Part shown: piece after piece, positions 21,668 through 35,830 of the stretch
Position numbering within the stretch: position 1 is the stretch's first letter
How the letters are laid out: the number at the start of each line of letters is the position of its first letter
NCBI GenBank assembly: GCA_023664365.1
Contig: JAMPFR010000033.1
Span: 1-37,389 of the forward strand
Length of the DNA: 37,389 bases
Reading direction: 5' to 3'
From: Acetatifactor muris
GTDB taxonomy: Bacteria > Bacillota > Clostridia > Lachnospirales > Lachnospiraceae
Made by a program: the position numbers and the translations under genes
Notes under the pieces: generated by a model
Told to the model about the DNA's origin: nothing
Seen by the model: only the letters and a program-made list of their open reading frames with translations
Databases searched by the model: none

Positions 21668-21675
21668 TATCCCAC

Positions 21676-21985
21676 AAAAAAACAGAAAAGCCTGCCGTCC
21701 AGATTTTGTTATCTGCTCCGCTGGCTTTTCTGCGCTGTTCCATGGGAAAGTTTCCCCATGCCTGTGTCCTGTAATGGTATAAGTTTCAGCTGAATGATCT
21801 ACAAACATCTATGTCCCGCTGCCGGGACGGATTCCCCTTGATCCATACAGGGAGCTGTCTCCCTGCTTTCTGTGTGATTCCTTTTCTCCGGCTGCCGCGC
21901 AGCCTTTCTGTAGAGCTCTCCTTTCTTTGGCGGGAAGGGCATTTTTATTTCCAATGCCCTGAAATTACCGCAACACCATGTTACC
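21676..21985 (-). ncRNA. Predicted structured regulatory RNA under a LytTR-type promoter
   Basis: A minus-strand transcript would start near 21985, 5-7 nt after the TATAAT at 21996-21991, and end at a strong terminator (CAGAAAAGCC at 21732-21723 with GGCTTTTCTG at 21692-21683, then seven T). Between them lie perfect hairpins: AGGGCATT/AATGCCCT, AGGGAG-ACAG-CTCCCT, GTCCCG-GCAG-CGGGAC and CATGGG/CCCATG. Purine-rich linkers (AAAGAAAGGAGAGC, CAAGGGGAATCC) resemble ribosome sites or anti-anti-SD. The only frames (for example 47 codons from an ATG within the first hairpin) lack a ribosome site. The layout recalls RNAIII, the AgrA-driven RNA of staphylococci, but no sequence homology is claimed. Confidence 0.6.
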
Positions 21986-21990
21986 TTTTC

Positions 21991-22059
21991 ATTATATATG
22001 TAAAACAGGAAAAATCCCCAATTTTGCCCCACATACAGATTTTTTCCCTAAAGTACAGA
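21991..22059 (-). promoter_or_regulatory. LytTR-type tandem-repeat promoter D (drives the predicted RNA)
   Basis: Read on the minus strand: repeat 1 TCTGTACTTTAGGGAAAAAA (22059-22040), repeat 2 TCTGTATGTGGGGCAAAATT (22039-22020), 23 nt, then TATAAT (21996-21991). There is no consensus -35 box, as expected for an activator-dependent promoter. Three other copies of this design lie at 30372-30442, 32628-32698 and 35746-35815. Confidence 0.7.
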
Positions 22060-22096
22060 CGTGCTCTTACTTTCTCACAAATTGATGCTTTCCAAA

Positions 22097-22140
22097 CAAA
22101 GAGCCGACAAATTATGATTGCTCACAATTTCATCGGCTCT
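22097..22140 (-). terminator. Probable terminator of the KTR gene
   Basis: AGAGCCGA (minus strand, from 22140) and TCGGCTCT (ending 22100) pair around a 25-nt loop, followed by TTGTTTG. The stem starts inside the last codons of the KTR gene. The T-run is interrupted, so the call is moderate. Confidence 0.45.
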
Positions 22141-22318
22141 GCGTCTGCGCGTCTGGCTCTTTGATGATGGTTACTTTTAAATTCTTCGCTTCAATCAGAC
22201 AATCCTGCCTGCATTTCGGACAATAAAGTGGAAAATTTTTCAATTCTGTATCTTCCCGCATTCGCAACCTCGTTTTATTTCCACAGGCAGGACAGTGTAT
22301 CCATTCTGTTTTCTCCAT
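22130..22318 (-). CDS. Cysteine-rich KTR protein
   Basis: The 62-residue protein has two zinc-knuckle pairs (HCPACGNKTRLRM and YCPKCRQDCLIEA) and the KTR motif after the first pair, matching the small cysteine-rich KTR family common in conjugative transposons and clostridial mobile elements. GAGGTG lies just before the ATG. Its function is unknown; a DNA- or RNA-binding zinc ribbon is likely. It sits between a LytTR-driven RNA and a lantibiotic-type ABC transporter. Confidence 0.85.
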   Translation of the reverse strand: MEKTEWIHCPACGNKTRLRMREDTELKNFPLYCPKCRQDCLIEAKNLKVTIIKEPDAQTQSR

Positions 22319-22510
22319 AATGACACCTCATTTCCATAGCAAAAGTCAAAAGAATATTTAAATGCTCAAACTGTTTTTCGATTTTGCTAATTATAATCCT
22401 CCAAAATTATAATCATTTTCACATTTTCAGGTCTGCCATAATCATAATTCAATTTGCTATAAACATCAAAACCCTCATGTGTTCCTTTACATACATTTCA
22501 GAATCTCATA

Positions 22511-23239
22511 TTACAACTCTGCTTTATTGAAAATTACAGCACTAGCTAAAAACATAATCAGAATTATAAATATCGAAAAAATAAGTGCCATTTTGTAATC
22601 ATGGTAAGAAAATGTTTTTCCATAAATCATAGGGATCTGTATCGTCGGAAAAAGACGCAGCAGACTTTTATCGGGAATCGTGGTGGAGGAATACGCCTTG
22701 TTTGTAAATACAACCCCTAAAATAGAACCTGCCACTGAAATCCCCATTGTCATGGCTGTTTTTCTCGTTAGCATTGCAATGGCGAAAAAAAACATGTCAA
22801 CAGCCCAATGCAAAGGCAAAGAGAGGATAATGCTTTTAGCGGCATACACAATCAGGTCAGGCAGGGAAAGCCCGGTTTCCAGCACTGGCAATGAAACTAT
22901 CATGGAAACCGCCATATATGAAATTATGATTGCTGTACATCCGAGGATATAACGGCAGCCTTTTACTAACAGAATATGAAAGCGCTTGTTTCCATAGGTA
23001 ACTGAATAAATGATAGTACGGTCAGTAAAATCGTCCGTACATGAAAACCCGGCATAAATTGCACAAGCCAATATCAGAATCATGCTTTCCTTTCCCAAAT
23101 TTAAGACCATATTTTCCACGCTGTCATATACCCCCGTAAAAATAGAGATACCTGCACAGCAGACCAATACAAGAGTTATTACCCACACTGTCATGTCTTT
23201 TTTGAGTTTGTATAATTCTGTTTTCATTAAATTCCTCAT
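22511..23239 (-). CDS. ABC-2 type permease, lantibiotic-immunity/bacitracin-like
   Basis: The 242-residue protein has about six membrane helices and starts with the basic segment MRNLMKTELYKLKKDMTVW that is usual for LanE/LanG- and BcrB-like permeases. It overlaps the ATPase gene by four bases (ATGA) and would form a transporter with it. Such pairs export or expel cationic peptides and give self-protection or resistance. It is AT-rich, unlike the GC-richer backbone, suggesting separate acquisition. The 22319-22510 gap downstream holds only a short degenerate frame. Confidence 0.8.
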   Translation of the reverse strand: MRNLMKTELYKLKKDMTVWVITLVLVCCAGISIFTGVYDSVENMVLNLGKESMILILACAIYAGFSCTDDFTDRTIIYSVTYGNKRFHILLVKGCRYILGCTAIIISYMAVSMIVSLPVLETGLSLPDLIVYAAKSIILSLPLHWAVDMFFFAIAMLTRKTAMTMGISVAGSILGVVFTNKAYSSTTIPDKSLLRLFPTIQIPMIYGKTFSYHDYKMALIFSIFIILIMFLASAVIFNKAEL

Positions 23240-23961
23240 TGCCCGTCCTCCAATATCTTTTCATAATACTGTTCCAGACTACCCGCAGATTGAAGGATAT
23301 CAGATGCGGATATTTCCTTCAGCATTCTGCCATTATGCAGAAAACCGTAATGTGTTGCGACCTGCTCTAGTTCATTCAGAATGTGGCTTGATATAATGAT
23401 TGTGATATGGTGATCTGTATTGAGTTTCAAAATCAACTTCCTGAATGCAACAATTCCTATTGGATCAAGCCCATTGATAGGTTCGTCTAATATAAGCATT
23501 TCAGGATTGTGGAGCAATGCTGTTGTTAGGGCTAAACGCTGCTTCATGCCCAAAGACAGATGTTTTGCCTTCTTTCTACCTTGTTTAAGCAGTCCTGTCA
23601 GTTCCAAAGTTTTCTTTGCGCTTTCAGCATTTTTTTTACCTGAATACTGCATCTGTACAAGATACAGATTTTCCAGAACAGATAAATGGGGATAAAGCGC
23701 TGGTGTCTCAATCATAAATCCAATATTTCTGCGCTGCCTGATAATTTCGGCTTCTGTTTTTGCACCAGCCAATGCTATCACGCCGGAAGTTTGATGTGAC
23801 AGTCCTGCCAAAATACGGAACAATGTTGTTTTCCCTGCACCGTTTTCACCAATAAGCCCATAGATGCTCCCTGTCGGCACGGACAAAGACACATGGTCTA
23901 AAGCCATAGCACTACCATATTCTTTACATAAATCATTAACCTGCAAAACATATTCTTTCAT
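23236..23961 (-). CDS. ABC transporter ATPase, lantibiotic-immunity/bacitracin-like
   Basis: The 241-residue ATPase has Walker A GENGAGKTT, signature LSLGMKQRL and Walker B MLILDEPINGLDP, matching the BcrA/LanF subfamily. ATG 23961 follows GGGGGTTGG; upstream in-frame codons run into the IS110 left end and are not credible. The gene starts only about 25 bp from the inferred IS boundary, so its original promoter region has been displaced to the other side of the IS. Before the insertion it probably lay about 100 nt behind the small gene at 25604. Confidence 0.88.
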   Translation of the reverse strand: MKEYVLQVNDLCKEYGSAMALDHVSLSVPTGSIYGLIGENGAGKTTLFRILAGLSHQTSGVIALAGAKTEAEIIRQRRNIGFMIETPALYPHLSVLENLYLVQMQYSGKKNAESAKKTLELTGLLKQGRKKAKHLSLGMKQRLALTTALLHNPEMLILDEPINGLDPIGIVAFRKLILKLNTDHHITIIISSHILNELEQVATHYGFLHNGRMLKEISASDILQSAGSLEQYYEKILEDGQ

Positions 23962-24054
23962 GCACCAACCCCCTACTACAATGTATTTATGGTTAATACC
24001 CCTTACAGCCAGTAAGGAATTACCCATCTTGTTGCTTAAGCTGTTAGAATGAGT

Positions 24055-24225
24055 AAGGCAATAGGTCTGGCCACTCCTTCCTAGGACCTGGCGTCCGTAT
24101 AAAAGTCAGCCAACCAGCCCTCATTCGCAGCATTCGTTTTACGCAGGTTGAACCCAGAGGCGTTCGTGTGATACCCAGTAGATTGAACAGGCAATGAGTA
24201 AACCCGGTATTGACCATTGCTAAAT
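24055..24225 (+). ncRNA. Candidate bridge RNA of the IS110 element
   Basis: IS110-group elements are known to express a bridge RNA from the noncoding left end; its loops pair with donor and target DNA. Here the left end forms hairpin AGGTC/GACCT (24063-24067, 24085-24089) with a 17-nt loop, and hairpin GCAATG/CATTGC (24191-24196, 24215-24220) with an 18-nt loop. The second loop contains GGTATTGACCAT (24206-24217), complementary over 12 nt, with one G-T wobble, to ATGGTTAATACC at 23989-24000, the inferred left junction. RNA ends are estimates. Confidence 0.5.
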
Positions 24226-24247
24226 ACATTCAAAGGAGTATCCTGTT

Positions 24248-25471
24248 ATGAACATGAACGCTGTTGGTATTGATGTTTCCAAAGGCAAAAGCACTGTCAC
24301 GATCCGTAAGCCCGGCGACGTGGTCATCATGCCGCCCTGCGACATCCGTCACACCCAGTCCTCCATCAATGCCCTGATCGAGCGGATCAGGAACCTTGAC
24401 GGGGAAACAAAGGTCTGCATGGAACACACCGGGCGGTACTATGAGCCGGTCGCCACATGGCTTTCCGATGCCGGTATCTTTGTCAGCGCCGTGAACCCCA
24501 TCCTCATTAGGGAGTTCGGCGATGATTCCCTCCGCACCCCAAAGACGGATAAGGCGGATTCCAAAAAAATCGCGCGATACACCCTTGACCGCTGGGCAAA
24601 TCTGAAGCAATATGGAAGCATGGATAAAACACGCAACCAACTCAAAACCATGAACCGGCAGTTCGGCTTCTATACGGTCCAGAAAACCGCCATGAAGAAC
24701 AACCTCATATCCCTGCTTGACCAGACCTATCCGGGCGCGAATGACTTCTTCAACAGCCCCGCGCGCAGCGACGGCAGCCAGAAGTGGGTGGATTTTGTCC
24801 ACACATACTGGCATGTGGACTGTGTACGTTGTAAATCCCTTCCCGCCTTTACGGAACACTATCAGAACTGGTGCAGGCGCAAGGGCTACAATTTCAGCGC
24901 GGAAAAAGCGGAGAAGCTTTACCGGGCGTCCTGTGACCTCATTGCCGTGTTCCCAAAGGACGACAACACGAAAATGCTCATCCGGCAGGCTGTCGCAATG
25001 CTGAATACCGCTTCCGAGACCGTGGAGAGCCTGCGACTGAAAATGGACGAAACCGCTTCCACGCTTCCGGAATATCCCGTTGTTATGGCTATGAACGGCG
25101 TCGGTCCCACCCTCGGTCCCCAGCTCATGGCAGAGATAGGGGACGTCACCCGCTTCACCCACCGCGGGGCGTTGACGGCCTTTGCCGGCGTTGACCCCGG
25201 AAAGAACGATTCCGGGAAACATATCCAGAAAAGTGTCCCCACAACAAAGAAAGGTTCGCCACACCTGCGCAGGACGCTTTTCCAGATCATGGACGGGCTT
25301 ATCAAGCGTTCGCCCGCTGACGACCCTGTTTATGCCTTCATGGATAAGAAACGGGCACAGGGCAAGCCGTATTACGTCTACATGACCGCCGGTGCAAACA
25401 AGTTCCTCCGCATTTATTACGGACGGGTAAGGGAATACCTTGCCACACTGTCCGAAACAGAAGAAAACTAA
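24248..25471 (+). CDS. IS110-family transposase (DEDD RuvC-like and Tnp20 domains)
   Basis: The 407-residue enzyme has the RuvC-like N-terminal domain (GIDVSKGKSTV with the first Asp, CMEHTGRYYEP with Glu, DKADSKKIARY with Asp) and the C-terminal Transposase_20 domain (MNGVGPTLGPQLMAEIG, FAGVDPGKNDSGKH) carrying the catalytic-Ser region. It carries out seamless insertion guided by the element's bridge RNA. AAAGGAG precedes the ATG. It is GC-rich compared with the AT-rich ABC genes around it and reads against their direction. It appears full-length and potentially active. Confidence 0.92.
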   Translation: MNMNAVGIDVSKGKSTVTIRKPGDVVIMPPCDIRHTQSSINALIERIRNLDGETKVCMEHTGRYYEPVATWLSDAGIFVSAVNPILIREFGDDSLRTPKTDKADSKKIARYTLDRWANLKQYGSMDKTRNQLKTMNRQFGFYTVQKTAMKNNLISLLDQTYPGANDFFNSPARSDGSQKWVDFVHTYWHVDCVRCKSLPAFTEHYQNWCRRKGYNFSAEKAEKLYRASCDLIAVFPKDDNTKMLIRQAVAMLNTASETVESLRLKMDETASTLPEYPVVMAMNGVGPTLGPQLMAEIGDVTRFTHRGALTAFAGVDPGKNDSGKHIQKSVPTTKKGSPHLRRTLFQIMDGLIKRSPADDPVYAFMDKKRAQGKPYYVYMTAGANKFLRIYYGRVREYLATLSETEEN

Positions 25472-25603
25472 GACTAACTCCAATCCTTTTATCAGGCCGG
25501 CGTTCTGCGGTGGTCTGGTTTTTATGGTTTCAATTCAACCTGTATAAAATTTTCAAAGTTCACAAATTTCTGCTTGACTTTTTATTTGCAGACTTAAATA
25601 GAA

Positions 25604-25729
25604 TTATTCTCCCTTTTTCTCTTTTGAAGTTTGCTGTTCTTTTTTCTTCCTGTACTCTTTGATTGCTTTATTCCTAAGTGGTATCCCAACACCAATCAGA
25701 AGTCCCACGATCAAAACAGTAAAATCCAT
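25604..25729 (-). CDS. 41-residue small membrane protein in the GntR-ABC operon
   Basis: A short frame starts at ATG 25729, with GAGGTGAG overlapping the permease stop, and encodes a hydrophobic N-terminal segment (FTVLIVGLLIGVGIPL) followed by a strongly basic tail (KEYRKKKEQQTSKEKKGE). This looks like a real small membrane protein and could be an accessory subunit of the upstream ABC transporter. It starts 9 nt after the permease stop. It is the last visible gene before the IS110 element. Confidence 0.68.
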   Translation of the reverse strand: MDFTVLIVGLLIGVGIPLRNKAIKEYRKKKEQQTSKEKKGE

Positions 25730-25738
25730 ATTCTCACC

Positions 25739-26389
25739 TCACAATTCTTTTCCCTGCACTATTTTGACAGATGCCAATATAGAAATGACATACATGATAA
25801 CAACCAAGAACGCCGCCCACAAAACCAACATCACAGGTGAACTGAAAACCGTAATAAACCATCCACTGCCGTCAGCTGGAATCTTAGTGATCAAAAACAG
25901 TGTTGCCAGAAAACCTGCCACCGGGATATACATAAACACCCTGCCCTTGATAGAGCCAAATTTATAATATCCGGGAAGCTGAAATACCGTATAAAGGGCA
26001 AAAAGAAATATTCCCACAGCAGCGGCAAAGGCTATGTCAAATGCACTGACAGTTTCACCCAAACTGCTTAATATAACAGGGTGGGTAATCAGGGAAAACA
26101 TCAATGCAAGTAACCCCATGATAATGATAAAAACATACCGCCCGACCACAAGTTCACTTTTACGGACTGGCAATATACCGTAAAGCCGTTCCATATCATT
26201 TTTCTCCGTAATGGAAAACGTATATCCGCTGGTCATGGCAATAAAGCACATGGCAAAGGAGATCCCTGTCAGGAGTGAGCGGTTGATTGCTGCAAAGACA
26301 GCAGGCAGCACCATTGTGAAGCATATTGTTTTCACATAAGGTCTTACTAAAGAAAAATCCAGTTTTACAGATTTCAAAATATTACTCAT
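25739..26389 (-). CDS. ABC-2 type permease of the GntR-controlled transporter
   Basis: The 216-residue protein has about six membrane helices (for example FIIIMGLLALMFSLI, MYIPVAGFLATLFLI) with a short loop ITEKNDMERLYGILPVRKSEL that is typical of ABC2-type permeases next to YtrB-like ATPases. ATG 26389 overlaps the end of the ATPase gene by 8 nt, with GAGGTG just before it. It likely works with the ATPase at 26382-27242 in envelope stress or antibiotic response. Confidence 0.8.
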   Translation of the reverse strand: MSNILKSVKLDFSLVRPYVKTICFTMVLPAVFAAINRSLLTGISFAMCFIAMTSGYTFSITEKNDMERLYGILPVRKSELVVGRYVFIIIMGLLALMFSLITHPVILSSLGETVSAFDIAFAAAVGIFLFALYTVFQLPGYYKFGSIKGRVFMYIPVAGFLATLFLITKIPADGSGWFITVFSSPVMLVLWAAFLVVIMYVISILASVKIVQGKEL

Positions 26390-27242
26390 ACTGTTCACCT
26401 CTCTTACTGGTAAATACCACAATATCGTCAATCGTTGCCGGTTCCACATTAAGGTGTGCAAACTGCTTTAAATCTTCGGTTTTTATGAGTGCCTCAAATC
26501 CTGTGGCAAAATCCCTGATGCCAAATGCTTTTTTATCCAGAACATCGGATAGCTCTTCACGCCCTCCCTTGACTATCCTGAAACTGTCCACAAATTCATC
26601 CTTGCCGCCGCTGAAAAACAATTCGCCATAACTGATATAGGTAATGTAGTCAGCAGCACGTTCCAAATCTCCGGTAATATGGGTAGAGAACAAAATGCTG
26701 TGTTCCCCGTCTTCAATATATTCTGACAGGATATGAAGAAGCTCATCCCTTGAAACAGGGTCAAGCCCACTGGTAGGCTCGTCTAATATCAATAATTTTG
26801 CATCGTATGAAAAAGCACAGGCAAGCATAAGTTTCATCTGCATACCTTTGGAAAGTTCTTTTACTTTTTTTGCAGGCGAAATATGGAATTTATCCAGCAA
26901 TTCAGAAAACCTTTGCGTGTTCCAGTTCTCATAGAAAACCGACACTGATTTCTCAACCTGTGACACCTTCCAGTCATCACTGAAATAGTTGGAATCAAAT
27001 ACAACGCCTAAACTTTTCTTTGCCGCCTGCTCGTCAGCAATATTGTCCAGCCCTAATATTTTCACTTCACCATCTGTACGCTTCAGCATATTTAGTATCA
27101 GCTTGATAGTTGTTGTTTTTCCGGAGCCATTCGGTCCGATCAGCCCCATGATATACCCTTTGGGCAGGGTAAAAGTAATGTCATGCAGCCGGAAATTGTC
27201 AAAGGATTTTGACAGGTTTTTTACTTCCAAATAATTATTCAT
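26382..27242 (-). CDS. ABC transporter ATPase, YtrB-like
   Basis: The 286-residue ATPase has Walker A GPNGSGKTT, signature LSKGMQMKL and Walker B LLILDEPTSGLDP, then a C-terminal extension of about 80 residues, as in YtrB/YhcH-type ATPases paired with a GntR repressor. It overlaps the GntR gene by 8 nt upstream and the permease by 8 nt downstream, so the three genes form one coupled operon. Confidence 0.88.
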   Translation of the reverse strand: MNNYLEVKNLSKSFDNFRLHDITFTLPKGYIMGLIGPNGSGKTTTIKLILNMLKRTDGEVKILGLDNIADEQAAKKSLGVVFDSNYFSDDWKVSQVEKSVSVFYENWNTQRFSELLDKFHISPAKKVKELSKGMQMKLMLACAFSYDAKLLILDEPTSGLDPVSRDELLHILSEYIEDGEHSILFSTHITGDLERAADYITYISYGELFFSGGKDEFVDSFRIVKGGREELSDVLDKKAFGIRDFATGFEALIKTEDLKQFAHLNVEPATIDDIVVFTSKRGEQYE

Positions 27243-27618
27243 CCGTTTTTTCCTCCATTAAAATATCCAGAAGACGATGCAGTTCCTCTCCTGAAAGGTC
27301 AGCCACACGGGCAGCATCTATCGCTTCTGATAAACTGTTTTCAATTTTGCAGACCAGTTGTTCCTTTAAAAGTTCTGAACCCCGTCCCAAAACAAAGCAG
27401 CCACGTCCTTGAATATTCTTTACAAAACCCTCCTCTTCTAATTCCGTATATGCCCTTGTCACGGTCAGAACACTGATTTTTAAATTTTTGGCAAGCGTCC
27501 GCAAAGAAGGCAGTGTTTCATCCGCATGTAAATCACCGGACATAATGGCAGATTTGACCTGCTGCTTGATCTGCTCATATATTGGTATGCCCGATATATT
27601 TGAAATAATAAGTTTCAC
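27235..27618 (-). CDS. GntR family repressor, YtrA subfamily
   Basis: The 127-residue regulator has the short YtrA layout: a winged helix-turn-helix (PIYEQIKQQVKSAIMSGDL, then LPSLRTLAKNLKISVLTVTRAY) and a small helical C-terminal part without a large effector domain. GTG 27618 is chosen because AGGAGG lies 6 nt before it; GTG 27624 overlaps that site. YtrA repressors respond to cell-wall antibiotics and control the adjacent ABC genes. Dyads at 27651-27662 just downstream of its -10 box look like its own operator. Confidence 0.87.
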   Translation of the reverse strand: MKLIISNISGIPIYEQIKQQVKSAIMSGDLHADETLPSLRTLAKNLKISVLTVTRAYTELEEEGFVKNIQGRGCFVLGRGSELLKEQLVCKIENSLSEAIDAARVADLSGEELHRLLDILMEEKTDE

Positions 27619-27650
27619 AATCACCCTCCTACTGTTAATGTTGTTATACT

Positions 27651-27691
27651 GTTATACATAACATAATAACACATAAATCAGTAGTTCACAA
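27651..27691 (-). promoter_or_regulatory. Promoter and operator of the GntR-ABC operon
   Basis: On the minus strand TTGTGA (27691-27686) and TATTAT (27668-27663) are 17 nt apart. The dyad GTTAT-N2-ATAAC (27651-27662) and a second GTTATAC copy at 27643-27649 lie immediately downstream, where a bound repressor would block transcription. Autoregulation by the GntR protein is inferred. Confidence 0.7.
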
Positions 27692-27745
27692 GAGATTTAT
27701 ATAAATTTAAGAAATGAACCTTAGAGGTAACTTTTGAAATACAAC

Positions 27746-27771
27746 CAAAAAGGAGCCTTTGCAGCTCCTTT
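27746..27771 (-). terminator. Terminator of the three-gene cluster
   Basis: On the minus strand AAAGGAGC (27771-27764) and GCTCCTTT (27756-27749) form a perfect 8-bp stem with a 7-nt loop and end in a T-run. It lies about 80 nt after the stop of the gene at 27852. The 27692-27851 gap otherwise shows no gene. Confidence 0.8.
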
Positions 27772-27851
27772 CCCTCGTTTTATATTTTTCAAGCGAACAT
27801 TCTTGCACATTAACAGCGAAGAATTTTGCATATTGTTCTCCTATTTTAGCT

Positions 27852-28514
27852 TTATGCTTCCACAAAATTCTTCTCATAAGCCGCAGAAACCGCTTCCCTT
27901 GTTATGCCAGTCGTCTTATAATATTGGCTTCCTGCTGTTCCAATAATTTCCGCTAAACTCCCGGCTTCATTTTTGCCTGCTGCCGCTTCCTGCCCTGACA
28001 GATTTTTCAGCTTTTCAAGAAACGCCACATAAAATGCCCGCTCCATCGCAACATATTTCTGATCTTCTGTACTCCTTGCAGGCTGCCCGGCAAGCGGATG
28101 GTCTAAGTCGTATAGCCACTTATTTACTGCATTGATTGCACTTTCGACAGAACTCCCCAACAAATCCACCTGATCCGTCTCATTCAACTCACCCCTCATC
28201 CATTTGCAGGCAATCGGTCCCGCAAGCTGTGTAAACCAGGCGTGCTTTCCATCAGGAGTTATGTATAGCCCAGCTTTGGCAATATGCATACCCGTTTCTT
28301 CTTCTGCTTCCATCCAAGCCTGCTTCACTTCATCAGGTGCATTCGTTCCAAACAAATCTATGCTTGAAGTTTTTTCCGACAAAATTTCTTTTTCCGCCTC
28401 CGCCACTTTCCGGCTTGCAATCTCCGCAAAGCTATTTCCTGTTTCTGCTTTTGCGGCTTTATTGTTCCTATATACCATTTGATAATAATTTGCTGCTATA
28501 CCATAGATGTCCAT
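27852..28514 (-). CDS. Unknown protein A of the LytTR-controlled three-gene cluster
   Basis: The 220-residue protein starts MDIYGIAANYYQMVYRNNK and has no signal peptide or membrane helix. It is rich in Ala, Glu and Lys in the N-terminal third. Its C-terminal part (ERAFYVAFLEK, then GITREAVSAAYEKN) resembles the C-terminal part of protein C (29607-30284), suggesting a shared module. ATG 28514 follows AGGAG; the longer frame to 28568 lacks a ribosome site. Such soluble, Ala/Ser-rich proteins without classical signals may be substrates of a specialised exporter, but this is speculation. Confidence 0.66.
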   Translation of the reverse strand: MDIYGIAANYYQMVYRNNKAAKAETGNSFAEIASRKVAEAEKEILSEKTSSIDLFGTNAPDEVKQAWMEAEEETGMHIAKAGLYITPDGKHAWFTQLAGPIACKWMRGELNETDQVDLLGSSVESAINAVNKWLYDLDHPLAGQPARSTEDQKYVAMERAFYVAFLEKLKNLSGQEAAAGKNEAGSLAEIIGTAGSQYYKTTGITREAVSAAYEKNFVEA

Positions 28515-28574
28515 TTTCCCACTCCTATTATTTGTCACATATTGAAAAGCGCACTGCCGTCGCACCATTTGTAT

Positions 28575-29531
28575 TCAAAACTGTGTTAATGCCCTGCCTG
28601 GATAAATTATTTCTGTTGACGTAAATGCATCACCAACCGAAACATTGATATGTCCACTGCTGTCAACGGCATACTCTTTGCCATAAACAGAAAATGTATC
28701 TCCCTCTTTATAACCGATTTCTATCCAGTTTATATTGTTCAAATTTTTTATCTCTGCATCAACATTCGTGACCTTGCCGGATTCCTGCAATATATAAGTA
28801 TGTTTTCCGGCTCCCGCATCTATGGAAAAGAAGCCCGGCGTAATTCCGACTTTTTCACAGGTCGATAAAACCTCATCCCTGCTGTATCCCCACAAATCCT
28901 TTCCCTGTGCCAGGCACGTCAGGATATTTCCCGCCTTCCGCATCTCCCACTTATAATTTGTCCCCTTTTGGTTTGTATTCTCCGCCAGCAGCGACTCTGA
29001 AGCCGCCCAGCCAATTTTCTCATTATTGACAGCCCATGTGTATCTGCTGCCGCTGGATGTTGTCCACGAATAATAGCTTTTATTGTTCAGAACCAAAGAA
29101 TTGTTTACAGCACGAATGCCTGACAGAGTGCTTGTGTTAATCTTCGGCACTGCATAATTTGGCACTACCTGACTGCTTCCGTTATAATCAAAAGAAATCA
29201 CGCCATAATCCTTAAAATTTGGATTATAACCGCAGGAAACATTCTCCCCAAAATTGATTGCATCCAGAATAGTGCTTGGATTATTATAGTTTGTAAAATA
29301 AAAGGATAATTCACTTGCAGATACATTTGCGCTTTTGTCCATCAATGCAGCTATGGATTCCTTTGAAAAACTCCTTGCGCTGTCGGAAATGCTCAGGCTG
29401 TCCCGTCCGCTGCTTCCCATTTCTGATAACAGCTTAATTGCCTGCTGCTGTCTTGCTATTTTAACCGCTGATCTGGAATGAAGCAGCGACTGGCTCACTC
29501 CATTCACGCCTGTCAAATCTGTTTTAACCAT
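28575..29531 (-). CDS. Unknown protein B of the LytTR-controlled three-gene cluster
   Basis: The 318-residue protein has an N-terminal helical part with the segment GRDSLSISDSARSFSK, similar in style to flagellar or FlgM-like regions, then a large beta-rich Asn/Ser/Tyr-rich domain (SYYSWTTSSGSRYTWAVNN, INWIEIGYKEGDTFSVYG). No signal peptide, membrane segment or LPxTG motif is seen. GGAGG precedes ATG 29531. It has no obvious similarity to its two neighbours. The composition of the second half suggests a secreted or surface protein exported by a nonclassical route; a toxin-like or matrix role cannot be excluded. Confidence 0.64.
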   Translation of the reverse strand: MVKTDLTGVNGVSQSLLHSRSAVKIARQQQAIKLLSEMGSSGRDSLSISDSARSFSKESIAALMDKSANVSASELSFYFTNYNNPSTILDAINFGENVSCGYNPNFKDYGVISFDYNGSSQVVPNYAVPKINTSTLSGIRAVNNSLVLNNKSYYSWTTSSGSRYTWAVNNEKIGWAASESLLAENTNQKGTNYKWEMRKAGNILTCLAQGKDLWGYSRDEVLSTCEKVGITPGFFSIDAGAGKHTYILQESGKVTNVDAEIKNLNNINWIEIGYKEGDTFSVYGKEYAVDSSGHINVSVGDAFTSTEIIYPGRALTQF

Positions 29532-29606
29532 TTTTATCCTCCATGCCTTTTACAATGCAAAATTCCACAGAAACACCTATCAAGTGCCCCTGCGGAATAA
29601 GGCAAA

Positions 29607-30284
29607 TTATATCTGTAAATCTATTGAACTGCCTAATTTTTTCATGTCCGCTTCCACAGACTTTCTTGTAATGCCGTCCAATGCCCCGGACGGAATCGGC
29701 TTTCCCAGCTCCCACTTAGGATCAGCTTCCCGTACCGCCGCATAAAATGCGTTTCTGTATGCACGTTCATACTGCTCCATAGTATATCCTGCTGCTAACC
29801 GGTCATTTTTCTCTGTCTTTCTATACAGATTATCATACACGTCCCTGCGCTTTGTCGTATCGCCATTGTGGACACCGTTTTCCTGCAGAAACTCTTTCTT
29901 CGTCAACTCAAACATTTCATCTCTGCTGCTTTCCGGAATGGAGATGATACGTTTCTGACGGCCTGCATTTTCGTCTGTCAGCACAAGCCCGGCAAGCCCG
30001 TTCCTGGGATTGATATAATCTCCGTCCTTATCGTAACATTTCATGGAATTTTTAATGCACTGGATATTTGTGTACATCGCACCATTTCCTGCCTGCATCA
30101 TCTCTTTGATTGCTGCCTTATATTGCTTGCTGTTCGTATCAATACCCGCCGCCTTTAACTGCGACTGTATAGAACTGCTGTTTAACTGCGACAGCTGGAA
30201 ACTGCCTATAATACTTGTCCCTTTTGTGCTTTTTGTCCCAAACATACTCTGGAACAAAAAACTGTAATCGGTGATTTTTGACAT
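29607..30284 (-). CDS. Unknown protein C of the LytTR-controlled three-gene cluster, DUF3879-like
   Basis: The 225-residue protein starts SKITDYSFLFQSMFG, an N-terminal pattern I associate tentatively with DUF3879 and similar clostridial or bacillus proteins. The middle carries CIKNSMKCYDKDGDYINPRNG, an EF-hand-like acidic loop. The C-terminal part (YERAYRNAFYAAVREAD, GITRKSVEADMKK) is similar to that of protein A. AAGGAGG lies before ATG 30284. It is the first gene after LytTR promoter C. Confidence 0.66.
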   Translation of the reverse strand: MSKITDYSFLFQSMFGTKSTKGTSIIGSFQLSQLNSSSIQSQLKAAGIDTNSKQYKAAIKEMMQAGNGAMYTNIQCIKNSMKCYDKDGDYINPRNGLAGLVLTDENAGRQKRIISIPESSRDEMFELTKKEFLQENGVHNGDTTKRRDVYDNLYRKTEKNDRLAAGYTMEQYERAYRNAFYAAVREADPKWELGKPIPSGALDGITRKSVEADMKKLGSSIDLQI

Positions 30285-30371
30285 AACTTCATCCTCCTTG
30301 ATCCTGTTCTCAAAATCCATTTTCATTTCCGGTGCATGTACTGCACCTGCATATACTGCACTGTCACTCTT

Positions 30372-30442
30372 ATTATCGGAAACCTGTATATCAAATCTGA
30401 TATTTTTATCCCGAGGTACAGATTTTTTCCCCGAAGTACAGA
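30372..30442 (-). promoter_or_regulatory. LytTR-type tandem-repeat promoter C (drives the three-gene cluster)
   Basis: Read on the minus strand: repeat 1 TCTGTACTTCGGGGAAAAAA (30442-30423), repeat 2 TCTGTACCTCGGGATAAAAA (30422-30403), 25 nt, then GATAAT (30377-30372). A degenerate further repeat with TTTAGGGAAAAAA lies upstream near 30450-30470. The leader contains a perfect hairpin GGTGCA/TGCACC (30331-30347). The gene start at 30284 is about 80 nt after the expected transcription start. Confidence 0.75.
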
Positions 30443-30513
30443 TTTTTTTATGTTTTTTCCCTAAACCGGCTCTAAATTACCCTAAAGCACCTTGATAATT
30501 TACGCTATCACGG

Positions 30514-31806
30514 CTATCGGTTCAGGATCACATCACTGTAAAATTTCCCGTCACCATTTTTATAGAGGATGCTGCCCCCGTATTTCTCCACGCACCGCTC
30601 CACATTCAGACAGCCGATGCCGGTACCCTTCCCGCCTATGCCTACCGGCCTGCCGTTCTTTATCCTTACTTCCTGTTCCACGCTGTTCTCTATGCGGATG
30701 GAAAGCATCTCGTTATAGCTTTTGATATGCACCCTGATGTAACGCTCCCCGCTGCACTTTAGGACAGCCTGCATTGCATTTTCCAGAAGGTTCCCAAAGA
30801 GCGTTGTCACATCCACCGGCTCTATGAACCCAAGCCCTGTGCTTTCCACCTTTACCACGAACCGGATGCCGATGCTTTCCGCCGCCTGCTTCCTGTCCGC
30901 AAGGAGGATGTTCAGCATTGGGTTGTCAGAGTATTCCACCGGCACAAGGGGCTTTAGGATGCCCCCGATCTGCCTGGTGTACTCCATCGCCTTTTCCGTC
31001 ATGCCTGCCCGGTACAGCTCCTCAATGGAGCGGAGATGCTTGCTGACATCATGCAGGACTTCAATGGACCTCCCATATTTCTCCCTCTGCCTCTCATAAT
31101 GCTCAAACTGCAGACCCTCCTGCTGCTTCATCATGGCGATCTGGAACTCCATGCTGTTCTTTTCATCCTCCACCTTCAGAGAATAAAACAAGTAGAGGTT
31201 TGCAAAGATAAGACAGCCCATATTAGCACAAAGCAGGAAATAGTCCGCTTTCCTTGTAACTGCTGTCGCAAGCATCAAAATATTGACTATACCGTAAATA
31301 AACATAACAAGATAAAGAAATACCTGCGTCCGGCTCTGCCTGTAATCCTTTTTCAAGAACCGCCTCAACAGGGCATAGTAAAAGAAGATCATTACCAACT
31401 TGGAAAACGCCACCTCTATGCTGTTTCTAATCACTGTATCTCCCGGCATAAGTGAAAGCTGCTCCATCAGAAAATCAATCCCATATACGCCAATTCCTTC
31501 AAAAAGTGCATTTGTTAGGAAAAAGCAACTTGCTTCCAGTACCCTCCAGTACCTTCTGTTGCTCCTATCCTCATAAAAGAAAAAGCTGATGATACCATAT
31601 ATCGGAAAATTTACTGCCGCATTCCATAAAGCACTTCTTTTCAGGTTTACCAGCGTCACGATTACCACAGCTACAGCGGCGGCAATCCGGTAAATCCACG
31701 GATTTCCAAAAGCTTTCTCATAGCGGTCACCCATGAACTGGAACATCAGCCCGGCAATGATCACACATGACAGAAAGCAACTGAACAAATATACTAAATT
31801 TTCCAT
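30514..31806 (-). CDS. AgrC-like GHKL sensor histidine kinase
   Basis: The 430-residue kinase has about six membrane helices in residues 1-210, then a coiled region, an H-box EVLHDVSKH with likely phospho-His 252, an N-box NLLENAMQAV (about 339) and a G-box GGKGTGIGCLNV (about 391). This is the peptide-sensing HPK10/AgrC type. ATG 31806 lies four nt after the stop of the regulator gene, with GTGGGGAG before it. The gene is GC-rich compared with flanking ABC genes. No AgrB or AgrD gene is found in the window, so the ligand may be made elsewhere or be unrelated. Confidence 0.88.
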   Translation of the reverse strand: MENLVYLFSCFLSCVIIAGLMFQFMGDRYEKAFGNPWIYRIAAAVAVVIVTLVNLKRSALWNAAVNFPIYGIISFFFYEDRSNRRYWRVLEASCFFLTNALFEGIGVYGIDFLMEQLSLMPGDTVIRNSIEVAFSKLVMIFFYYALLRRFLKKDYRQSRTQVFLYLVMFIYGIVNILMLATAVTRKADYFLLCANMGCLIFANLYLFYSLKVEDEKNSMEFQIAMMKQQEGLQFEHYERQREKYGRSIEVLHDVSKHLRSIEELYRAGMTEKAMEYTRQIGGILKPLVPVEYSDNPMLNILLADRKQAAESIGIRFVVKVESTGLGFIEPVDVTTLFGNLLENAMQAVLKCSGERYIRVHIKSYNEMLSIRIENSVEQEVRIKNGRPVGIGGKGTGIGCLNVERCVEKYGGSILYKNGDGKFYSDVILNR

Positions 31807-31810
31807 GCCC

Positions 31811-32557
31811 CTACTCCCCACTGCTATGGATATATTCATTGAGCCGTTCCTTGAACTGCGCCACCCGTTTCTGCGACAGCGGCACCACCGCGCCGTTTTT
31901 CAGCACGACTTCATATCCCTTTGTCTTTGCCACATTTTCAAGGTTCACAAGGATGCCCCGGCAGCTCGTCTCAAAGCCGTATGGCTGCATCCTCTCCTCC
32001 AGCCCGCTGATGGCATCCGGATACTCGTACACCATGTTTTCCGCCACGATCCTGACCTTCTTTTTTGCCTTGACATATTCAAAGTACAGGATAGCATCAA
32101 CGGAAAGCAACAGGGCAGGCTTTTCCGACAGGATGCCGTTTTCCTCATAGGATACGTTCTTAAACTCCAGCCGCACCTCCTCTTTCCGGTACTGCCGCAG
32201 GAATGCCTGCAGCTGTTCCTCCAGTGCTTCCGCCGATACCGGCTTTTCCAGAAAGGCAAAAGCGTGTACGGTATTCACCGCATCCATGCAGTATTGCCCG
32301 AAATTGGTAGTGTATATGATCTTTGTGGAATGGTTCCTGCTGTAAAGCTCCTGCCCCGTTTCTATCCCGTTCCTGCCCTCCATCATAATATCCATAAAAA
32401 TCAGGTGGAAGCTGTCATCCGACTGTAACAGCTCCCCGCCGGAGGTAAAGCTTGTGATCCGGTATTCTTCTGTGTAATTGTCTAAAAGCGGTGTCAGGAT
32501 GCCTATGAGGTTATCCCTGTCCGCCTGTTCGTCCTCGCAGACTGCTATCTGAAGCAT
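31811..32557 (-). CDS. LytTR family response regulator (AgrA-like)
   Basis: The 248-residue regulator has a receiver domain with the acidic pair near residues 8-10, phospho-acceptor D56 in LIFMDIMM and K105 in LEKP, followed by a LytTR DNA-binding domain (about 140-243, with DAILYFEYVKAKKKVRIV). LytTR proteins bind direct repeats about two helical turns apart. The four tandem 20-nt repeats in this window fit that mode. AAAGGAGG precedes the ATG, and promoter A lies about 70 nt upstream, so it likely controls its own operon with the kinase. Confidence 0.9.
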   Translation of the reverse strand: MLQIAVCEDEQADRDNLIGILTPLLDNYTEEYRITSFTSGGELLQSDDSFHLIFMDIMMEGRNGIETGQELYSRNHSTKIIYTTNFGQYCMDAVNTVHAFAFLEKPVSAEALEEQLQAFLRQYRKEEVRLEFKNVSYEENGILSEKPALLLSVDAILYFEYVKAKKKVRIVAENMVYEYPDAISGLEERMQPYGFETSCRGILVNLENVAKTKGYEVVLKNGAVVPLSQKRVAQFKERLNEYIHSSGE

Positions 32558-32627
32558 TGCTCATACCTCCTTTGCTGTTTTATGTTTGGGAGATTGCTAC
32601 TACGGTGTGTATGTAATACCCCCTATT

Positions 32628-32698
32628 ATTATACATGATTTTTCGGCATATAGAAAATCGTAATTCCCGATGTACAAATTTTTTCCCCGAAAGACAGA
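32628..32698 (-). promoter_or_regulatory. LytTR-type tandem-repeat promoter A (drives regulator-kinase operon)
   Basis: Read on the minus strand: repeat 1 TCTGTCTTTCGGGGAAAAAA (32698-32679), repeat 2 TTTGTACATCGGGAATTACG (32678-32659), 25 nt, then TATAAT (32633-32628). A dyad GATTTT/AAAATC lies between repeat 2 and the -10 box. It indicates autoregulation. Confidence 0.75.
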
Positions 32699-32740
32699 TA
32701 AAAGATCGGGGAAGATACTTGACAAACCTTTCCCGATCTT
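32698..32740 (-). terminator. Terminator of the BceAB-type operon
   Basis: On the minus strand AAGATCGGG (32740-32732) pairs with CCCGATCTT (32710-32702), followed by TTTT. It ends directly at repeat 1 of promoter A, so one unit ends exactly where the next begins. Confidence 0.75.
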
Positions 32741-32770
32741 ATCCGTCACATATCAAACACTGGCTTCTGC

Positions 32771-34729
32771 CTATTTCTCTATACAAATATTCCTTTTAAA
32801 AAGATAATAAGTTGCCTGATAGTAAACAAAATAAATCACACCAAAAACCGCAAATGTAATCATTCCACTGACGGGTATGATATGATCCTGAAGAATAAAA
32901 GTGCCAAACATACTCTGCACCCCTATGATAAGCAATACCAGAACAATTACAGGCATAACAAGCGGTATCAAAAAAAAGGTTGCTAGTTCTCGGTGTATCA
33001 GATGTTTCTGTGTCTTTTTTGATACACCCATTTTATCTATGATTCCGTAATTTCGCCCATTATACTCCATTGCAGATAACTGTTTGAATGCAAATATCGT
33101 ACTGGACAGAAGAATAAACACAAGACTTAAATAAAGTCCACAAAAAGAAATTGTGGTAAAGCCAGTCAATGAGTTTGCAATTCCCCATGCCCTTACCGTA
33201 ACGCTCATTGTAATCCTGTCAGAAAACGCCTCGTCCTGCTGCATTTGTGGGTTCCACTCGCCTCCATTTAGGAAACGGTGTATCTCACCCCGCAGCTCTG
33301 GGTATCCATCATTTTCCAACTCCATCACAATCCGGATCTTGTCTGGTATCAGAAGTGAAGCCACATCATCAGGAACTACAAGAACATACCCATTTACCCC
33401 TGCTATCCGATATTGTTCCATCGGTTCAGTGTATAGAGTAGATTGGGGATTTATTAATACATTCCCTGCTAGAGTAACTTCATTTTGACTGGAAAGCGTC
33501 TCCATGATTTTCTTCTGATAGTTCCAAGTGTCGCAATGTACCAAATACTCACCGGATTGCAAGGATACCTCCGGCAATCCCAACAAGGAACGCAGATAGC
33601 TATAATCGGAATAAGACATCGCTAATATATTGTAATTTTCAAGGGTATAAAGATAAAATACCCTGCTGTCAAGAACAGAGGTGCTTTCGTTCACATAGGA
33701 AACCAATGGCAAAAAGCTGTCCTTTGTAAGCGGCGCATCAATCGCTACACCCACATCATAAGGATATTCCACTTCTACGTTGGCTCTGTAACCGTTCCCC
33801 ATTGCCAGACCAATAAACATAGTAGCCAAAGAAATTGTAAAAAGAATAGCTGTAACCGCCATCATTCGTCCGCCAGACTGTATCCGTCTTGTTATCTGTC
33901 CTAAATAAAACAAATTATCATTCGCGTATTTAATAGTTACTCTATTCCGGGCAAAAATTAGCAGCAGATAAGGAATATTGTAATAGATTCCATAGATTCC
34001 AAAGAAAAGACCGCAAACCGCAGCTATAAAAACCAACCATACCGCATTTGTCTGTATTGAAAGCCCTTTCCATATTCCAAACATACTCCCTGCAATCACA
34101 GCAAAAGAAAAACCTATAACCAATATTCTGCTTGCAATGTTTTTATTAGGTATCTGTTCATTTTTATGACTGTCATGCAAAAGATTTATAATTTTTGTAC
34201 GGCGGATAATACGGACTGCCCGAAAAATTCCCACTCCATACATCAGTAAAAAGAAAACAAATACCAGCATCAGGGCACTTATGGAACAAGTAACTTTATA
34301 TTCATGAGGGGCTTTAAAAATATTTACTACAATCTGTGAAAATACACCAGACAAAACTGTGCCTACAGCAATCCCAATACAAAAAGCAACTATCCCTATC
34401 AAGCAATTTTCCAACAAAAATAATTTCTGGATAGTTCCTACTTCCATTCCAAGCAGCTCATAAGTTGCAAACTCCTTTTTGCGCTGTTCCAACATAAACC
34501 GCACTGCATAACCAATCACAAAAGACACTGCCAATGCAACCAGCACCGACAAAACCGACATGCAAGTTGTCAACATTGCCATATTTTCTGACAGCGAAAT
34601 AATATCCTCCGAAAGCCCCAATGCAACAAAAGAATACATTAACGCTATTGTCAGAGAAACAGTAACAAAATAAATAAGATAGTTTTTGGCAGAACGCACC
34701 ATATTACGCATAGCTAATTTAAGATACAT
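32771..34729 (-). CDS. BceB-type ABC permease with FtsX-like domains
   Basis: The 652-residue permease has the N-terminal LKLAMRNMVRSAKNYLIYF start typical of BceB proteins, ten or so predicted membrane helices in two FtsX-like sets, and a large extracellular domain between them (about residues 310-520). BceAB transporters sense or remove peptide antibiotics that target the cell wall and signal to a partner kinase. ATG 34729 overlaps the ATPase gene by 11 nt, with GGAGGTG before it. No BceS/BceR pair is adjacent; the LytTR system lies directly downstream instead. The gene is AT-rich. Confidence 0.85.
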   Translation of the reverse strand: MYLKLAMRNMVRSAKNYLIYFVTVSLTIALMYSFVALGLSEDIISLSENMAMLTTCMSVLSVLVALAVSFVIGYAVRFMLEQRKKEFATYELLGMEVGTIQKLFLLENCLIGIVAFCIGIAVGTVLSGVFSQIVVNIFKAPHEYKVTCSISALMLVFVFFLLMYGVGIFRAVRIIRRTKIINLLHDSHKNEQIPNKNIASRILVIGFSFAVIAGSMFGIWKGLSIQTNAVWLVFIAAVCGLFFGIYGIYYNIPYLLLIFARNRVTIKYANDNLFYLGQITRRIQSGGRMMAVTAILFTISLATMFIGLAMGNGYRANVEVEYPYDVGVAIDAPLTKDSFLPLVSYVNESTSVLDSRVFYLYTLENYNILAMSYSDYSYLRSLLGLPEVSLQSGEYLVHCDTWNYQKKIMETLSSQNEVTLAGNVLINPQSTLYTEPMEQYRIAGVNGYVLVVPDDVASLLIPDKIRIVMELENDGYPELRGEIHRFLNGGEWNPQMQQDEAFSDRITMSVTVRAWGIANSLTGFTTISFCGLYLSLVFILLSSTIFAFKQLSAMEYNGRNYGIIDKMGVSKKTQKHLIHRELATFFLIPLVMPVIVLVLLIIGVQSMFGTFILQDHIIPVSGMITFAVFGVIYFVYYQATYYLFKRNICIEK

Positions 34730-35486
34730 TGGCAGTTTCACCTCCCAAAGTTGCAAGTACGCTTATTATCTCATCGAAAAAGACCTTTCTTTCACCTGTT
34801 CTTTTCAAAAGTTCTGTGACGATTTTTCCGTCTTGTAAGAATAAAATGCGGTTTGCATAACTAGCCGCATAAGCATCATGTGTCACCATAAGAATGGTAG
34901 CTCCCATTTGTTCATTCATACTTTGAATTGTTTGCAGCAACATTTTTGTTGAATTGCTGTCTAGTGCTCCCGTTGGCTCGTCCGCTAAAATCAGCTTCGG
35001 GCGATTGATAATTGCCCTGGCACAAGCGCAACGCTGTTTTTGACCTCCCGACACTTGATAAGGATATTTTGCCAATATATCTGTAATGTTAAGGCGGTCA
35101 GCAATCTCTCTCACCTTTCCATCAATCTGCTCTGCCTGCGTATGATTGATTGTCAACGCCAAAGCAATATTTTCTGAAATAGTCAGGGTGTCCAGTAAGT
35201 TAAAATCTTGAAAAACAAACCCCAAATTCTCCCGACGAAAGCGGGCTAATACCTTATCCTCAATTTTTGTTATGTCTGTGCCATCTAAAAAAACATGCCC
35301 CTCACTGACACTATCTATTGTTGAAATGCAGTTAAGCAAGGTGGTCTTTCCGGAGCCGCTTGTTCCCATAATACCAACAAACTCTCCGGTCTGGATGGAC
35401 AGACTGATATCGTTAATTGCCTTTGTCAAGTTGCTCTGGTCTCCATAATTTTTTCGAATATGCTCTAATCTCAATATTTCTCCCAT
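34719..35486 (-). CDS. BceA-type ABC transporter ATPase
   Basis: The 255-residue ATPase has Walker A GTSGSGKT (41-48), signature VSGGQKQR and Walker B LILADEPTGALDS, matching the MacB/BceA group. GAGGAG precedes ATG 35486. The leader is about 250 nt long, from promoter B, and contains a second possible promoter (TTGGAT, 16 nt, TATAAT near 35620) and tiny frames. It is coupled to the permease by an overlap. Confidence 0.9.
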   Translation of the reverse strand: MGEILRLEHIRKNYGDQSNLTKAINDISLSIQTGEFVGIMGTSGSGKTTLLNCISTIDSVSEGHVFLDGTDITKIEDKVLARFRRENLGFVFQDFNLLDTLTISENIALALTINHTQAEQIDGKVREIADRLNITDILAKYPYQVSGGQKQRCACARAIINRPKLILADEPTGALDSNSTKMLLQTIQSMNEQMGATILMVTHDAYAASYANRILFLQDGKIVTELLKRTGERKVFFDEIISVLATLGGETANVS

Positions 35487-35613
35487 ATGAATCTCCTCAA
35501 TTCTAACTACCTTAGAACAGCAAAATTATCATTTCCCCATGAAAACCGCTTGCCTATTCAAATCGCTGAGTTTTGTCCATTACAGTACCCCATTTATCTA
35601 ATAATTACAACTT

Positions 35614-35667
35614 TTAGATTATACCATACCATATTTTCCATCCAATCACAACAGAATATTCTTCCAT
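35614..35667 (-). CDS. Possible 17-residue peptide in the BceA leader
   Basis: ATG 35667 is preceded by AAAGGTAG at short spacing and opens the frame MEEYSVVIGWKIWYGII. The peptide is hydrophobic and aromatic, lacks Cys, and would be the first product of promoter B. It could be a leader peptide, a small signal or chance. Only the ribosome-site spacing and position support it. Confidence 0.25.
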   Translation of the reverse strand: MEEYSVVIGWKIWYGII

Positions 35668-35745
35668 TCTACCTTTACAAACTGATTCCGCTGTATAGCT
35701 TCTGCCTTATGAGACAGTAATGCAGTATAGTTACTACACCCTTTT

Positions 35746-35815
35746 ATTATACATAGTTTTTCGGCATATAAAAACTGTAATTCCCGATGTACAGATTTTT
35801 TCCCCGAAAGACGGG
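35746..35815 (-). promoter_or_regulatory. LytTR-type tandem-repeat promoter B (drives BceAB-type operon)
   Basis: Read on the minus strand: repeat 1 CCCGTCTTTCGGGGAAAAAA (35815-35796), repeat 2 TCTGTACATCGGGAATTACA (35795-35776), 24 nt, then TATAAT (35751-35746). A dyad AGTTTTT/AAAAACT lies between repeat 2 and the -10 box. It is closely similar to promoter A over its whole length. Confidence 0.75.
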
Positions 35816-35830
35816 TAGACACTTAAAATT

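What the first reader, a model, noticed from the sequence alone, without database searches (positions are those of the whole stretch)
21991..35815. Four copies of one LytTR-type promoter architecture form a self-contained regulon
On the minus strand two tandem 20-nt repeats (consensus TCTGTACTTCGGGGAAAAAA) are followed by 23-25 nt and then TATAAT or GATAAT. This occurs at 21991-22059, 30372-30442, 32628-32698 and 35746-35815, always without a good -35 box. LytTR regulators bind direct repeats about two helical turns apart, and a LytTR regulator with an AgrC-like kinase is encoded in the middle. The four targets are the regulator-kinase operon itself, a BceAB-type transporter, a three-gene cluster of unknown proteins and a probable structured RNA. 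The match of repeats and spacing is seen directly; that the local regulator binds them is inference.
Basis: partly seen in the sequence, partly recalled or inferred. Interest (0 to 1): 0.88.

Follow-up and report, generated by a model that had tools for sequence, protein, structure and literature searches.

The report
Tandem-repeat promoters of a LytTR regulon
A gut bacterium carries, on what looks like mobile DNA, a two-part sensor switch whose likely binding site, a repeated 20-letter word in front of a nearly fixed promoter, stands before several neighbouring genes and one RNA, and the same wiring recurs in related genomes with other genes behind it.

Summary
Four tandem 20-nt repeats lie on the minus strand, each followed 23-25 nt later by TATAAT or GATAAT. 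A matrix trained only on other genomes scores them 39.6-60.1; the best of 200 shuffles reaches 8.1. The 22 genomes behind the close regulator relatives all carry sites (64 in all; reversed-pattern control 0). Among 397 family genomes only three have a site: the two with the close regulator, and one with a single weak site. In three regulators only 35-37% identical, a diverged 20-nt tandem repeat stands just behind the kinase gene. Over 61 unique sites the -10 box is nearly fixed and the -35 box is close to random. The RNA target is a conserved, folded locus; 6 of 11 RNA loci carry the site. New points: the regulon is wider than four targets; promoter and leader stay conserved to the start codon while the gene behind changes; the LytTR domain lacks the common FhRhHRS motif. 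I file it as a new variant of the LytTR (VirR/AgrA-like) kind.

The parts
35776..35815 (-). tandem repeat site 1, upstream of the BceAB-type transporter genes
   Evidence: matrix score 51.3 with outside-only training, shuffles at most 8.1
35746..35751 (-). -10 box TATAAT of site 1
   Evidence: offset 64 from repeat start
34719..35486 (-). BceA-like ABC ATPase
   Evidence: PF00005 E 4.8e-34
32771..34756 (-). BceB-like FtsX-domain permease, 661 aa as listed; a start at 34729 gives 652 aa
   Evidence: PF02687 E 4.3e-15
32659..32698 (-). tandem repeat site 2, upstream of the regulator-kinase operon
   Evidence: score 54.4
32628..32633 (-). -10 box TATAAT of site 2
   Evidence: offset 65
31811..32557 (-). 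LytTR response regulator, 248 aa
   Evidence: PF04397 E 1.1e-12, PF00072 E 1.5e-12
30514..31839 (-). AgrC-like membrane kinase with GHKL domain
   Evidence: PF14501 E 5.2e-19; hydrophobic segments within the first 221 residues
30403..30442 (-). tandem repeat site 3, upstream of the DUF3879 gene cluster
   Evidence: score 60.1
30372..30377 (-). -10 box GATAAT of site 3
   Evidence: offset 65
29607..30284 (-). DUF3879 protein, first gene behind site 3
   Evidence: PF12995 E 2.9e-93 for the longer frame from 30326; start by ribosome-site rule
28575..29531 (-). 318-aa cargo protein of unknown function; a 90% identical relative in L021 has its own site
   Evidence: no Pfam match
27852..28568 (-). 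238-aa cargo protein of unknown function; a 47% identical relative in L013 follows a site
   Evidence: no Pfam match
22020..22059 (-). tandem repeat site 4, upstream of the structured RNA
   Evidence: score 39.6; same place before the RNA in five other loci
21991..21996 (-). -10 box TATAAT of site 4
   Evidence: offset 63
21672..21984 (-). conserved structured RNA ending in a terminator-like hairpin; both ends are estimates
   Evidence: fold z-score -5.23; homologues; consensus fold

Best explanation
The locus is a two-component regulon on what is probably a mobile element. A membrane kinase of the AgrC/GHKL kind senses an unknown signal and phosphorylates the LytTR regulator. The regulator binds the two in-phase 20-bp repeats as a dimer and helps RNA polymerase at promoters that have a -10 box about 45 bp after the start of the second repeat and a poor -35 box. 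It so switches on its own operon (positive feedback), a BceAB-type transporter, a swappable cluster of DUF3879-type cargo genes and a small structured RNA. Shown by sequence: repeats, near-fixed geometry, poor -35, protein families, conservation, co-occurrence. Inferred: mobility, binding, phosphorylation, activation rather than repression, and the signal.
For: Four sites far beyond chance. The 22 genomes behind the close regulator relatives all carry sites, 64 in all, reversed control 0. Among 397 family genomes, sites with at most one mismatch occur only in the two that have the regulator at 88% or more. In three regulators of 35-37% identity a diverged tandem repeat of period 20 lies 40 to 270 nt behind the kinase gene (L064, L067, L069). 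60 of 61 unique sites have at least 4 of 6 TATAAT matches at offset 62-68 and 48 of 61 at least 5 of 6, against about 33% and 6% at random positions; TTGACA matches are close to random. The two L064 repeats, same geometry, have TTGACA at offset 42. Reckoned from a -10 box starting at -12, the pair is centred near -63; AgrA repeats are put near -60 (passage).
Against: No binding or transcript data. The genomes were found through the regulator, the sites are related by descent, and the whole element may travel together, so counts are not independent. G176 has one site (3 mismatches) but only a 36% identical regulator. L008 lacks a site behind its kinase. Seven of ten divergent loci show no strict tandem repeat near the operon. 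With the relaxed consensus one distant locus, L034, also reaches the threshold, as does one reversed control. The common motif FhRhHRS is not met. Period 20 is a minority form in the LytTR table read, where 21 is usual.
Confidence: 0.82

Rival explanations
1. The repeats are bound by a different regulator that travels with the element, such as the XRE protein, the sigma-like protein sig158 or an OmpR-type protein, and the LytTR protein acts elsewhere.
For: Such genes lie near some sites; G176 has a site with no close LytTR relative.
Against: Of 21 window proteins compared, L064 and L067 share only regulator and kinase, and L069 these and DUF3879, yet a diverged repeat stands behind the kinase in each. 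The three divergent regulators with CHQC instead of CRG/SRG have no site found; five of the seven others do, L062 only at the threshold and L062 and L066 away from the operon.
Confidence: 0.1
2. The regulator binds the repeats but represses, or has mixed effects.
For: Strong -10 boxes, 22 of 61 with a TG just upstream, could fire alone.
Against: The repeats lie upstream of the polymerase core site and the -35 is poor, the layout of activators; AgrA and VirR activate from like positions (passages).
Confidence: 0.06
3. The repeats are a recombination or cassette-capture sequence, and their place before genes is a by-product.
For: Site and leader are conserved to the start codon while the gene behind changes; extra units in L010, L015 and L016 carry kinase or regulator remnants.
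Against: The -10 keeps a nearly fixed distance over the target classes, including the regulator operon and the RNA.
Confidence: 0.04

Closest known systems
VirSR regulon of Clostridium perfringens (passages seen, PMC2838878)
   Same: LytTR regulator (family recalled; also named so in a passage) with membrane sensor; paired direct repeats in fixed phase upstream of the promoter; targets include regulatory RNAs; accessory targets, some on plasmids
   Different: VirR boxes are described as separated by 7-8 nt and just upstream of a -35 element; here full 20-bp repeats, a poor -35 and other targets; repeat word different (recalled)
AgrAC of Staphylococcus aureus (passages seen, PMC4227749)
   Same: LytTR regulator with a GHKL-type kinase (kinase kind recalled); two direct repeats centred near -60; suboptimal promoters; own operon among the targets
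   Different: no agrB or agrD gene noticed here; motif FFRCHNS there, FETSCRG here (lined up by eye)
LytTR Regulatory Systems such as HdrRM and BrsRM (passages seen, PMC6193735)
   Same: LytTR protein that activates its own operon and others through paired direct repeats of 9 bp, mostly 12 bp apart
   Different: those pair a LytTR protein with a membrane inhibitor; here receiver domain and kinase; period 20; poor -35
ComE (solved structure 4cbv, sequence match E 4.1e-06)
   Same: match over residues 40-240, that is receiver and LytTR part
   Different: weak similarity; other binding word (recalled)

Membership tests
LytTR-family response regulator | LytTR domain with receiver domain | tested here: met
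   PF04397 E 1.1e-12 and PF00072 E 1.5e-12, both over cut-off
LytTR-family response regulator | most conserved motif FhRhHRS in the DNA-binding domain | tested here: not met
   motif from PMC4227749 (passage); window has FETSCRG, relatives mostly CRG (lined up by eye). The paper calls it the most conserved motif, not an absolute requirement
LytTR-regulated promoter | paired direct repeats about two helical turns apart | tested here: met
   period 20 in the four sites; published 9 bp repeats with 11-13 bp between
LytTR-regulated promoter | repeats just upstream of a weak or suboptimal core promoter | tested here: met
   -10 at about offset 65, -35 close to random
LytTR-regulated promoter | binding of the regulator to the repeats | not testable with these tools
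   needs gel shift or footprint
agr quorum-sensing system | AgrB processing enzyme and AgrD peptide precursor encoded beside the kinase | tested here: inconclusive
   neither seen among the genes scanned around the operon, but no dedicated search for AgrB or short peptide genes was made
BceAB-type transporter | ABC ATPase followed by a large FtsX-type permease | tested here: met
   PF00005 and PF02687 on neighbouring genes; the large extracellular loop was not tested

The most novel reading that the evidence does not exclude
A portable regulatory head. The promoter with its tandem repeats and its leader up to the start codon, often with the tail of the kinase gene, is the constant unit; different DUF3879, DUF6033, FlxA and other cargo genes are exchanged behind it by recombination. 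One element-borne two-component system so commands an open, growing set of cargo genes and transporters together with a structured RNA, across many gut Lachnospiraceae.
Probability: 0.45. Interest if true: 0.7.

Novelty: new variant of a known kind. Interest (0 to 1): 0.56.

Why it matters
It gives a clear, testable binding word and promoter geometry for a LytTR subfamily that lacks the common recognition motif, ties several uncharacterised protein families and an RNA with no Rfam match to one switch, and suggests how a mobile element may keep new cargo under one command by swapping genes behind a constant promoter.

Tried and rejected
Ideas rejected. Chance repeats: excluded by shuffles. More sites elsewhere in the own genome: only four tandem sites, and the single-repeat hits on C112, C128 and C139 lie inside unrelated genes. 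DUF3879 as always LytTR-controlled: rejected, 3 of 30 DUF3879 loci looked at carry a site (30 of 44 matches were given as loci, with about 1.5 kb on each side). A viral origin: no regulator relative and no exact tandem site in viral contigs; in phage records 38 matches, all below 60% identity, the best listed 35%. A plasmid match for 21900-36400: none by megablast. The RNA as a known Rfam family: the only match, E 0.71, lies elsewhere and below its cut-off.

Led nowhere. The structure prediction of the DUF3879 protein was poor (mean pLDDT 60.6), so no fold search was run. A DNA pattern for the 3' part of the RNA found nothing in viral contigs. NCBIfam gave no family above its cut-off for the regulator, kinase or cargo. 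Paper searches for DUF3879, LytTR with Lachnospiraceae and direct repeat, and the repeat letters or DUF6033 returned no paper; FlxA, DUF6033, DUF4885 or DUF3879 gave 77 papers, and the 15 listed hold FlxA only and none is on this by title; LytTR with integrative and conjugative and two-component gave three, none on this by title. Passages of PMC6222199 concern an OmpR-family regulator and were not used.

Limits. In some searches the site matrix did not include the -10 region, but sites are related by descent. The controls (0 of 7 genomes) are other phyla and thus weak. The C-terminal pattern in the passing notes was written after seeing the ends. Positions of -35 and start are reckoned, not mapped. 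The regulator search scored at most six first-look candidates per genome at E 1e-30, so absence there is not proof; G008, for instance, has a kinase part and a site on a contig of 4451 bases with no regulator match.

Full report
Setting. The window is the whole of contig C101 of a genome with 174 contigs. The record titles of its regulator's close relatives are mostly Lachnospiraceae or other Clostridia. The left half holds Tad-pilus-like and other genes. The right half, on the minus strand, runs from a BceAB-type transporter through the regulator and kinase to a DUF3879 cluster, further ABC transporter genes and the RNA. That this is a mobile element is inferred from an IS110 transposase, varied neighbourhoods in relatives and the spread of the locus; no ends or transfer genes were tested.

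Observation. A matrix built from 32 sites of other genomes only scores the four at 39.6 to 60.1; the best position that is not part of a site scores -6.8, and the highest of 200 dinucleotide-preserving shuffles is 8.1.

Recurrence. A search for the regulator in one genome per species gave 32 loci, 25 of them close (L008-L032, 83-95% identity over the matched part, some cut by contig ends or broken) and seven distant. The window and the 25 close loci hold 53 sites, 46 of them unique, with 26 or more of 33 letters matching; L026 and L031 show none in their stretch. I then searched the 22 genomes behind the 25 loci (L022, L028 and L031 were left out as sharing genomes with L018, L026 and L015, judged by contig and record names): 22 of 22 have sites, 64 in all, with 0 in the reversed-pattern control. 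The seven genomes with distant regulators, of other phyla, have none. Of 397 family genomes, three have a site: the own genome (4), G370 (2, with 0 and 3 mismatches) and G176 (1, 3 mismatches). The regulator at 88% or more is in the own genome and G370 only; 33 of 397, the own included, have some relative at E 1e-30.

Diverged regulators. Ten stretches around regulators of 35-48% identity were examined. With a strict test (13 of 16 letters repeated at period 18-23 within 450 nt before the regulator or behind the kinase; 20 stretches) four stretches in three loci have a tandem repeat, best at period 20 and with a TA(C/T)-x-T-(C/G)-G core: L067 and L069 behind the kinase, L064 behind the kinase and also before the regulator, there pointing at a gene on the other strand; 81 of 2000 random stretches show any such repeat. 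A relaxed consensus adds L062 (at the threshold, far from the operon) and L066 (two places, 1.5 to 2 kb away); the distant locus L034 and one reversed control also reach that threshold. A second relaxed test gave the same loci with 2 reversed-control hits in 262,888 bases. L059, at 48% identity, shows only a half-decayed version behind the kinase by eye. The regulators of L061, L063 and L065, which have CHQC where the others have CRG or SRG, have no site found; numbers are small and descent is not separated from function.

Promoter geometry. Over 46 unique sites the mean -10 score peaks at offset 65 from the start of the first repeat (3.14; next best 0.26). Over 61 unique sites from 40 sequences (window, L008-L032, L136-L148, L153), 60 have at least four and 48 at least five TATAAT matches at offset 62-68; random positions give about 33% and 6%. 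TTGACA matches at offset 40-44 are close to random: 20 of 61 with four or more, against about 22%; two have five, none six. The two L064 sites have the same layout but carry TTGACA at offset 42. If the -10 begins at -12, the repeats start at about -77 and -57. Passages of published work put AgrA repeats near -60 (PMC4227749), LytTR repeats of 9 bp mostly 12 bp apart and often 10 bp upstream of the -35 (PMC6193735), and VirR boxes in fixed phase just upstream of the -35 (PMC2838878).

Targets. Pfam found among these 59: 11 with a receiver domain (6 members have LytTR), 10 DUF3879, 9 with an OmpR-type DNA-binding domain, 7 CPBP/Rce1-like, 5 with sigma region 4, 4 DUF6033, 3 ABC ATPase, 2 FlxA, 2 with sigma region 2, 1 MATE, 1 GHKL kinase (in L021, where the gene finder skipped the regulator). 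Classes overlap. For the RNA sites the listed gene is sig158, more than 1 kb further on, so the RNA is the nearer target. Sites in L008, L012 and L025 precede genes whose starts look like lipoproteins by eye.

Cargo exchange. Eleven units that I chose from other loci were compared with the window's DUF3879 unit. The two repeats are 82-98% identical and the leader from offset 75 to the start codon 59-92%. The first 150 bases of the gene are 91% and 72% identical in the two DUF3879 genes but 32-47% in the nine others. In nine of eleven the 170 bases upstream, mostly kinase tail, are also 80-90% identical; in L021 (second unit) and L143 they are not (35%), so site and leader can occur without the kinase tail. 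L010, L015 and L016 carry extra units with kinase or regulator remnants. This fits exchange or capture of genes behind a constant head; no breakpoint test was made.

The RNA. Window 21984-21672 folds at -112.8 kcal/mol, z-score -5.23 against 100 shuffles. Searched with the window's stretch, 2 of 397 family genomes match, the own and G264. Searched with the L140 copy, 8 of 25 chosen genomes give 10 matches, L140 itself among them. With the window that makes 11 RNA loci. Six have the site with its -10: window, L138/L155, L139/L157, L140/L149, L148/L150 and L153; four of these were found through the site. L151 and L152 keep the RNA behind other upstream DNA, and L154, L156 and L158 match only in part and show no site. 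The consensus fold of eight sequences has 66 pairs, 15 with a two-sided change that keeps the pair, but the covariation term is small (-1.09) and the L138 row aligns poorly. The terminator-like hairpin is the best conserved part. Rfam has no match there.

Assessment. That the local LytTR protein binds the sites is inferred from co-occurrence, co-divergence and geometry. Activation, phosphorylation and the signal are inferred from the families. The recurring transporters and CPBP proteases hint at peptide or envelope stress, but this is a guess. It is a new variant of a known kind: unusual are the full-length 20-bp repeat, the poor -35, the changed LytTR motif and the change of cargo behind a constant head. 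The paper searches named in Tried and rejected found no description of it; the library lacks most subscription journals.

Noticed in passing
window:29607-30284 and cargo genes of L010, L014, L017, L021: Cargo proteins of different families end alike (SSIDLQI, VSVDIRL, NNFDYSI, ANLDLKV, GVDIKI). A pattern written after seeing them fits 12 of 406 reading frames of 120 aa or more, all of these cargo kinds or, once, an unidentified frame with a DUF3879-like end; perhaps a shared sorting or secretion tail. Not all cargo has it.
   Followed up: partly
window:20386-21990: The RNA lies with an XRE-like gene on the other strand and a sigma-like gene (sig158); relatives of both stand near the partial RNA match in genome G264 (L105), where no site is seen.
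   Followed up: partly
L136, L137, L141: A site subtype (CTGTATTTC with CTGTAAGTCGG) precedes a 234-aa protein starting MERKILILC or MERWILILC; G176 has a similar site although its LytTR regulator is only 36% identical.
   Followed up: partly
L011, L014, L015, L016, L018, L024, L029: In these loci a CPBP/Rce1-like membrane protease gene stands between the site and the regulator.
   Followed up: no
window:24248-25471: An IS110-type transposase (PF01548, PF02371) lies between two sets of ABC transporter genes.
   Followed up: no
window:860-3900: RcpC/CpaB and T2SSE matches suggest a Tad-like pilus cluster on the same contig.
   Followed up: no
window:15241-18291: A 1016-aa reading frame joins N6-methylase and SNF2 helicase matches.
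   Followed up: no
window:35897-36244; L020, L022, L023, L147: A DUF6809-like gene (orf115; Pfam match below cut-off) or, in L147, a protein that looks alike recurs near a site and may belong to the backbone of the element.
   Followed up: no
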